Origin: Microcaldota archaeon
Lineage (GTDB): Archaea; Micrarchaeota; Micrarchaeia; Anstonellales; Anstonellaceae
Length of the DNA: 50,513 bases
Direction: 5' to 3'
Assembly: GCA_018304295.1 (NCBI GenBank)
Contig: JAGVWK010000008.1
Coordinates: forward strand, 1 to 50,513
In this document: one piece after another, positions 8,157 to 34,734 of the stretch
How the letters are laid out: each line of letters starts with the position of its first letter
How positions within the stretch are numbered: position 1 is the first letter of the stretch
Position numbers and translations under genes: made by a program
The notes under the pieces: generated by a model
Told to the model about the DNA's origin: nothing
The model's input: the letters and a program-made list of their open reading frames with translations, nothing else
Databases searched by the model: none

Positions 8157-8309
8157 TAGCCCCGACCAGATTCGAACTGGTGTAACTAGGTTTCTTTCAA
8201 CCGTGACGATTTTCCCTTTTTCCGCCAACGCTTTTTCGCCCGTACCCGCCTGGAGGGCGAAAAAGGGTTGTTCAAAGCCTAGTGTCCTTGGCCGCTAGAC
8301 GACGGGGCT
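8157..8309 (-). tRNA. tRNA-Gln(TTG) with 80-nt intron (8192-8271)
   Basis: AGCCCCG/CGGGGCT acceptor, GTCT/GGAC D-stem, CTAGG-CTTTGA^A-CCTAG anticodon arm, ACCAG-TTCGAAT-CTGGT T-arm; canonical 37/38 intron. Confidence 0.93.
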
Positions 8310-11690: not shown

Positions 11691-11827
11691 TGGGCCGAAG
11701 GAGATTTGAACTCCCGACCTTTCGATTTCAAAAGTTTCTGCGCGCATGCGCAAAAATTTATCAGTCGAACGCTCCAACCAAGCTAAGCTTCCGTTAACAG
11801 TTGAAATTCAAATGTTAATACCGGCCC
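11691..11827 (-). tRNA. tRNA-Ile(GAT) with two introns (approx. 11789-11818 and 11727-11758)
   Basis: GGGCCGG(11821-11827)/TCGGCCC acceptor, GCTT/GAGC D-stem, TTCGA-CTGATA^A-TCGAA anticodon arm, GGGAG-TTCAAAT-CTCCT T-arm; removal of 30 + 32 nt gives a 75-nt cloverleaf. Confidence 0.82.
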
Positions 11828-34230: not shown

Positions 34231-34734
34231 TTGGACGAAAAAATACTTTCAATTGTAAGCGCGAAACTGAAAAAATGGGAAGGCATTCCGATAAGCGAGG
34301 ACAAGCTCAAGGAAATACGCGACGAGGTTTACAAGCGCACAAAAAGCAACAAGTTTGCGCCCTTTTCCAACATAAAGAAATGGGTAAAGCACGCCCGCAT
34401 TGAGCTTAAGCGCGCGCAAAAGCCGGCCGCAAAAGCCCATCCGGTTATAAGGGCAAAAAAGGCGGAGCGCATGCAGGAAGAGCCACTGCGCGCAGCACCC
34501 GTGCAGGTGCCTGAGTTTTCCAAGGCGGTTGAGGCTTCCGTGAACGAGCTTAAGCTTTCCACGCAGCCGCATTTGCAGGAAGTGCCCCTTCCAAAGCCCA
34601 CAATAGTGTTTGACAAGGTGTATTTGCAAAGCATAAAGCACGAGATTGCAGGCATACGCCAAGTGATGGAGCGCGTGTCGCGCCAGCTTGACAAGCTTGA
34701 GCACGAGCTCTCTTCGCACCGCCCGGACGACTAA
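34231..34734 (+). CDS. Hypothetical protein (TTG start)
   Basis: aaggtgatattTTG: strong SD then TTG; long charged ORF ending just before the next gene. Confidence 0.65.
   Translation: MDEKILSIVSAKLKKWEGIPISEDKLKEIRDEVYKRTKSNKFAPFSNIKKWVKHARIELKRAQKPAAKAHPVIRAKKAERMQEEPLRAAPVQVPEFSKAVEASVNELKLSTQPHLQEVPLPKPTIVFDKVYLQSIKHEIAGIRQVMERVSRQLDKLEHELSSHRPDD

What the first reader, a model, noticed from the sequence alone, without database searches (positions are those of the whole stretch)
11691..11827. tRNA-Ile(GAT) gene needing two introns removed, one at a non-canonical site between acceptor and D-arm
The 3' acceptor strand TCGGCCC has no partner next to the D-arm; the matching GGGCCGG lies 30 nt further upstream (11821-11827). 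Removing about 30 nt (11789-11818, itself bounded by ttaaca/tgttaa inverted repeats) and a second 32-nt intron at 37/38 (11727-11758) gives a complete 75-nt tRNA-Ile cloverleaf. Non-canonical tRNA introns are known in some archaea with broad-specificity splicing endonucleases, but position about 9/10 is rare.
Basis: partly seen in the sequence, partly recalled or inferred. Interest (0 to 1): 0.72.

Follow-up and report, generated by a model that had tools for sequence, protein, structure and literature searches.

The report
Archaeal isoleucine tRNA with two introns
This tiny archaeon's only detected gene for one isoleucine transfer RNA is broken by two short introns, one at an unusual spot between acceptor stem and D-arm; relatives with and without that insert indicate that both are real introns, of a kind already known from archaea with a broad-specificity splicing enzyme.

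Summary
Confirmed. The minus strand of 11691-11827 encodes tRNA-Ile(GAT) in three exons. Removing 11789-11818 (30 nt, junction 9/10; 8/9 is sequence-equivalent) and 11727-11758 (32 nt, 37/38) leaves a complete 75-nt tRNA; ARAGORN calls it Ile only with both introns out. Orthologs settle the borders: fifteen relatives, including the same-genus genome, read straight through 9/10, and three Micrarchaeota carry a homologous insert there. Five lack the 37/38 intron. No second tRNA-Ile(GAT) was found in the 84%-complete genome. The genome encodes an epsilon2 splicing endonuclease closely related to the ARMAN-2 enzyme, reported to cleave relaxed motifs. The 9/10 motif has standard bulge-helix-bulge geometry but a weak central helix (C4C5G6/CGG plus G7.A) and excludes the acceptor stem, so splicing probably acts on a nascent or refolded transcript. 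RNA-level splicing is untested. New member of a known kind: non-canonical tRNA introns. In passing: a second intron-bearing tRNA, Gln(TTG), lies at 8157-8309. Its intron holds a ~51-nt structured module repeated in tRNA introns and elsewhere in Micrarchaeota, whose tail resembles the 9/10 intron's.

The parts
11691..11827 (-). tRNA-Ile(GAT) gene, pre-tRNA body (three exons, two introns)
   Evidence: orthologs
11819..11827 (-). exon 1: GGGCCGG T8 A9 (5' acceptor strand)
   Evidence: 7/7 pairing with TCGGCCC (G7.U66 wobble); same sequence in intronless genus-g7 relatives
11789..11818 (-). intron 1 at 9/10 (30 nt; 8/9 equivalent)
   Evidence: precisely absent in 15 relatives incl. same-genus G002; homologous intron in G012, G018, G019
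11759..11788 (-). exon 2: D-arm, 5' anticodon strand, anticodon GAT, A37
11727..11758 (-). intron 2 at 37/38 (32 nt)
   Evidence: absent in G001, G003, G004, G009, G011, which read CTGATAATCGAA
11691..11726 (-). exon 3: A38, 3' anticodon strand, variable loop, T-arm, 3' acceptor TCGGCCC, A73
11822..11824 (-). C4C5G6, 5' strand of the proposed BHB central helix at 9/10
   Evidence: pairs with 11791-11793; fold of the 5' 58 nt gives P 0.56-0.59
11791..11793 (-). intron CGG, 3' strand of the BHB central helix, followed by bulge AA|G10
   Evidence: invariant in all four intron-bearing genomes
11813..11818 (-). TTAACA, 5' strand of the intron inner helix
   Evidence: pairs with 11794-11799; pairing largely kept through changes in relatives
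11794..11799 (-). TGTTAA, 3' strand of the intron inner helix

Best explanation
This is a working single-copy tRNA-Ile(GAT) gene of a Micrarchaeota archaeon. Its precursor carries two introns, at 9/10 and 37/38, cut out by the genome's epsilon2-type splicing endonuclease and followed by exon ligation. At 37/38 the anticodon loop pairs with the intron end (relaxed BHB, 3 of 4 pairs). At 9/10, exon nucleotides C4C5G6(G7) pair with intron (A)CGG, giving bulges U8A9|U and AA|G10 around an intron hairpin. Because this pairing excludes acceptor pairs 4-6, cutting most likely happens on the nascent transcript before the 3' acceptor strand exists, or on a locally refolded precursor. Shown: gene anatomy, precise presence/absence of both introns in orthologs, presence of the enzyme gene. 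Inferred: splicing, its order and its exact sites.
For: The gene is recognised as tRNA-Ile(gat) only with both introns removed. Orthologs occur in 19 of 20 family genomes, with precise intron absence in 15 for 9/10 and in 5 for 37/38, and a homologous 9/10 intron in 3 others. Only Ile(GAT) found in the genome. Epsilon2 EndA: 436 bits over nearly the whole length of ARMAN-2 4fz2, with the ASL Tyr-Lys and catalytic Tyr/His/Lys conserved in the family. The proposed structure is 92.9% paired across the four genomes versus at most 48.2% in slid controls. The BHB-like fold is the minimum-energy structure of the isolated 5' part in 3 of 4 species. The literature reports that ARMAN-type epsilon2 enzymes cut relaxed motifs at varied tRNA positions (PMC4033280; PMC12397907).
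Against: No RNA data. In the full-length precursor the acceptor stem beats the 9/10 BHB by 6.4 kcal/mol here and 7.5-10.2 in relatives, and central-helix probability is ~0. The 9/10 central helix has 3 Watson-Crick pairs plus G.A, and the 37/38 one has a U.U mismatch. Covariation is not above column shuffles with four sequences. No good TATA-like box lies upstream: score 3.0, near the background mean of 1.9, versus 5.8 or more for 16 of 17 other tRNA genes here; the intronless same-genus ortholog is equally poor at 2.9. The assembly is 84% complete.
Confidence: 0.88

Rival explanations
1. A disrupted pseudogene: the acceptor-D insertion killed the gene and another intact tRNA-Ile(GAT) does the work.
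For: Weak promoter-like sequence; G7.U66 wobble instead of the A7-U66 pair of the same-genus ortholog; genome only 84% complete.
Against: No other Ile(GAT) found. All tRNA positions are intact. The same insert stands in orthologs of three other genomes whose tRNA bodies are also intact. The intron is conserved and structured.
Confidence: 0.06
2. Only the 37/38 intron is endonuclease-spliced; the 9/10 insert is removed by another nuclease or retained as an expanded junction.
For: The 9/10 BHB is outcompeted by the acceptor stem in full-length folds; the insert folds as its own hairpin between acceptor and D-arm.
Against: CGGAA next to the 3' site, complementary to C4C5G6 through its CGG, is invariant in four genomes while much of the rest of the intron varies. 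Spacing around positions 8-10 is invariant in intronless relatives. Known epsilon2 enzymes take relaxed motifs (PMC12397907).
Confidence: 0.05
3. The two 'introns' mark a split (trans-spliced) tRNA whose pieces are transcribed separately.
For: Split tRNAs are known in archaea (PMC3218864).
Against: All exons lie in order within 137 bp and the introns are 30-32 nt.
Confidence: 0.01

Closest known systems
Non-canonical tRNA introns of ARMAN-1/ARMAN-2 with epsilon2 endonuclease
   Same: Same enzyme type; introns with relaxed BHB at unusual positions, multiple introns per tRNA (PMC4033280; PMC12397907)
   Different: This intron is at 9/10 of tRNA-Ile(GAT); I could not check whether ARMAN lists include that site (the primary paper, 10.1093/nar/gkr692, is not held)
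Thermoproteales multiple and non-canonical tRNA introns
   Same: Up to three introns per tRNA, positions including 3/4 and the D-arm; related introns shared among different tRNAs, read as transposition (PMC4090602; PMC4033280)
   Different: Different phylum and, by that literature, a different (alpha-beta)2 enzyme; 9/10 is not among the positions the review names
tRNA-Thr(GGU) intron gain in Caldiarchaeum subterraneum
   Same: Intron present or absent between very close genomes; gain by recombination at a tRNA gene proposed (PMC3293823)
   Different: There a large mobile element is involved; here only a 30-nt intron and one exon nucleotide (G7) hint at exchange

Membership tests
Archaeal endonuclease-spliced (BHB) tRNA introns | Interrupts a tRNA gene whose spliced form is a complete cloverleaf | tested here: met
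Archaeal endonuclease-spliced (BHB) tRNA introns | Exon-intron borders supported by precise absence in orthologs | tested here: met
Archaeal endonuclease-spliced (BHB) tRNA introns | Bulge-helix-bulge (strict or relaxed) at the junctions | tested here: inconclusive
   9/10: 3-nt bulges, C4C5G6/CGG plus G7.A, forms in the isolated 5' part but not in the full-length fold; 37/38: 3 of 4 central pairs
Archaeal endonuclease-spliced (BHB) tRNA introns | Splicing endonuclease of a type able to take relaxed motifs in the genome | tested here: met
   epsilon2 EndA homologous to ARMAN-2 with conserved ASL Tyr-Lys and catalytic residues; cleavage itself not assayed
Archaeal endonuclease-spliced (BHB) tRNA introns | Removal at RNA level, exons ligated | not testable with these tools
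   no RNA data
Split (trans-spliced) tRNA | Exons at separate loci or separately transcribed | tested here: not met
   contiguous 137-bp gene
Self-splicing group I intron | Large catalytic core recognisable by covariance model | tested here: not met
   30/32-nt inserts; no Rfam match in the window
tRNA pseudogene | Redundant with an intact copy and/or decayed tRNA positions | tested here: not met
   the incomplete assembly leaves a small gap

The most novel reading that the evidence does not exclude
The 9/10 intron is a minimal member of a mobile tRNA-intron module of Micrarchaeota (AAC-hairpin-GTTNACGGAAR). The module has spread among anticodon-, D- and T-loop sites of many tRNAs and into non-tRNA loci flanked by direct repeats. 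It entered this species' tRNA-Ile recently by exchange with a genus-g7-like gene, bringing G7 with it, and it is spliced co-transcriptionally before the acceptor stem can form.
Probability: 0.2. Interest if true: 0.65.

Novelty: new member of a known kind. Interest (0 to 1): 0.4.

Why it matters
It adds a well-supported 9/10 site to the places where archaeal tRNA genes can be interrupted, with close relatives that have and lack the intron, which makes recent gain or loss directly testable. Removing it by a BHB mechanism would require opening or pre-empting the acceptor stem, a clear prediction about the order of tRNA folding and splicing. Both tRNAs of this window are missed by ARAGORN and by Rfam's gathering threshold, so tRNA counts of such genomes made that way are underestimates.

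Tried and rejected
Rfam gathering scan of the window: nothing. A 9/10-intron covariance model found no further copies in the family beyond the four tRNA-Ile genes; one E=0.39 hit in G008 shows no tRNA context. A phylum-wide pattern found no more carriers; the fifth hit (G004) is an intronless gene matched from a chance upstream GGGC. The ~51-nt module model scores the 9/10 intron only at E=1.6, so common descent with the module is not established. The module has no hit in the phage collection and only a sub-threshold Ocean-V match in Rfam (21.6 bits versus gathering 75). A third tail motif at 34535-34545 has no tRNA near it. The key ARMAN primary paper is not held.

Full report
Observation. 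The minus strand of 11691-11827 reads GGGCCGGTA-[TTAACATTTGAATTTCAACTGTTAACGGAA]-GCTTAGCTTGGTTGGAGCGTTCGACTGATA-[AATTTTTGCGCATGCGCGCAGAAACTTTTGAA]-ATCGAAAGGTCGGGAGTTCAAATCTCCTTCGGCCCA. ARAGORN reports no tRNA in the window, and Rfam's tRNA model reaches only 27.8 bits on a truncated match (positions 5-66 of 71). In a test of four versions, only the one with both inserts removed is called tRNA-Ile(gat). A T-arm scan of the window shows a single fully pairing acceptor strand for this T-arm within 260 nt upstream, at 11827.

Orthologs. Of 20 held genomes of the family, 19 have a match. Fifteen lack the 9/10 insert. They read GGGCCGGTAGCTTAGCCTGG (genera g4 and g7) or GGGCCGATAGCTTAG (same genus, G002; also g5); genera g2, g3 and g6 have the same layout with a slightly different acceptor. 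Three genomes of genus g7 carry a homologous insert: G018, G012 and G019. The 37/38 intron is absent in G001, G003, G004, G009 and G011, which read CTGATAATCGAA, and is of variable sequence and length elsewhere. So both inserts have clean empty sites in functional-looking orthologs. An A at both borders makes 8/9 and 9/10 equivalent by sequence; 9/10 fits BHB cleavage geometry better.

Not a redundant pseudogene, as far as the data go. Whole-genome tRNA searches found no other Ile(GAT), in an assembly estimated 84% complete. One caution: the upstream region lacks a good TATA-like box (3.0 against 5.8 or more for 16 of 17 other tRNAs here), but the intronless same-genus ortholog is as poor (2.9), so this is not specific to the intron-bearing gene.

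Enzyme. The genome encodes a 406-aa tRNA intron endonuclease with two PF01974 stretches. It aligns over nearly its whole length to the ARMAN-2 epsilon2 endonuclease 4fz2 at 436 bits. The ASL Tyr-Lys (Y160-K161 in ARMAN-2) and catalytic Tyr, His and Lys, whose roles are given in PMC12397907, are conserved in this protein and its relatives (the G018 protein is cut short just after the Lys). Reviews credit this enzyme type with cutting introns of relaxed BHB form at various tRNA positions (PMC4033280).

Structure at 9/10. Exon C4C5G6 pairs with intron CGG. With G7.A counted as the fourth step, the bulges are U8A9|U and AA|G10, the same geometry as a 37/38 BHB. The intron inner helix largely keeps its pairing in all four genomes through changes such as A-U to G-U to G-C. 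Over the whole structure 92.9% of cells pair, against at most 48.2% in slid controls, though covariation does not exceed column shuffles with only four sequences. In the 5' 58-61 nt alone the central helix has probability 0.56-0.88 in three species and 0.27-0.29 in G019. In the full-length precursor it is near zero, because acceptor pairs 4-6 use the same nucleotides (penalty 6.4-10.2 kcal/mol). My inference is that this intron is removed from the nascent transcript, or after local opening of the acceptor stem. At 37/38 the central helix is C32-G, U33.U, G34.U, A35-U here, and a full four pairs in G012 and G013 (read from the sequences).

Evolution. On an endonuclease tree, carriers of the 9/10 intron are not one clade. 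At least three changes are needed, and the nearest sisters of G000 (G002) and of G019 (G013) lack it. G000 pairs G7 with U66. Its 3' half matches G002 (A7-U66), while G7 is the g7 state (G7-C66). One nucleotide is thin evidence, but it fits exchange of the 5' exon plus intron; repeated loss is the alternative. A phylum-wide pattern search of 301 genomes found no carriers beyond these four.

Beyond the finding. Loose tRNA searches show heavy tRNA disruption in this genome, including D-loop and T-loop inserts. A ~51-nt module, AACC-stem-TCCAGRYGGGNAC-stem'-CGTTNACGGAAA, recurs at the 5' end of 37/38 introns of Tyr, Ala, Glu, Asp, Gly and Gln tRNAs, in D-loop and T-loop introns of relatives, and outside tRNAs. 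Its stem shows compensatory changes (covariation score 0.234 versus 0.067 in shuffles, 0 of 500 as high). A covariance model finds matches in 33 of 296 Micrarchaeota genomes, the distant ones weak. One copy lies in this window inside a second hidden tRNA, Gln(TTG) at 8157-8309. The 9/10 intron ends in GTTAACGGAA|G with AAC opposite GTT, like the module's frame, but the model scores it only at E=1.6, so kinship is suggestive, not shown.

Verdict. An authentic doubly interrupted tRNA gene, by comparative evidence. The kind (non-canonical archaeal tRNA introns served by an epsilon2 endonuclease) is known; the site and its presence/absence pattern are the new parts. Whether 9/10 has been listed before I could not establish: the review lists 3/4, 20/21, 22/23, 25/26, 29/30, 30/31, 45/46, 53/54, 56/57, 59/60 'etc.' (PMC4090602).

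Noticed in passing
window 8157-8309 (-); intron 8192-8271: A second hidden intron-bearing tRNA, Gln(TTG), 73 nt when spliced (ARAGORN tRNA-Gln ttg), with an 80-nt 37/38 intron whose end AAAG pairs perfectly with CTTT of the anticodon loop; missed by ARAGORN and Rfam on the raw window.
   Followed up: yes
window 8219-8269 (-); G000 C43, C8, C23, C12, C40, C41, C20, C42; G002, G007, G010, G013, G018, G019 and others: A ~51-nt structured module (AACC-stem-TCCAGRYGGGNAC-stem'-CGTTNACGGAAA) repeated in anticodon-, D- and T-loop introns of many tRNAs and at non-tRNA sites; 33 of 296 Micrarchaeota genomes match. Looks like a mobile tRNA-intron family.
   Followed up: partly
G000:C40:9112-9162 (L081); G002:C4:365811-365861 (L131); G002:C1:19550-19600 (L132): Module copies outside tRNAs are flanked by direct repeats: 19 bp at the start of a gene that looks like a 2-oxoacid:ferredoxin oxidoreductase beta subunit (read by eye), ~50 bp at a different point of the same gene in the same-genus genome, 11 bp at a third place.
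   Followed up: partly
G000 C30:17343 (Lys), C12:8344 (Gly), C29:2956 (Leu), C41:3222 (Pro), C9:28387 (Ser), C27:31944 (Lys), C43:338 (Tyr): Many tRNAs have ~70-110-nt inserts in the T-loop sharing CCTAGGGGGAACACAAGC...CCCCTGAGGTTTCACCCC, with ends like TTCAA/TTGAA; similar sequence also stands at places without tRNAs.
   Followed up: partly
G000:C22:16591-16700 (L049): tRNA-Val(CAC) has a ~31-nt D-loop intron relative to tRNA-Val(TAC).
   Followed up: no
L020:1471-1977 (-) and 18 relatives (L108-L125): A second, fast-evolving EndA-like protein of ~170 aa is present in 19 of 20 family genomes; where epsilon2 has the catalytic His it has Arg-Ala/Pro-Gln or similar, and the Lys is mostly lost outside this genus, so probably a non-catalytic partner.
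   Followed up: partly
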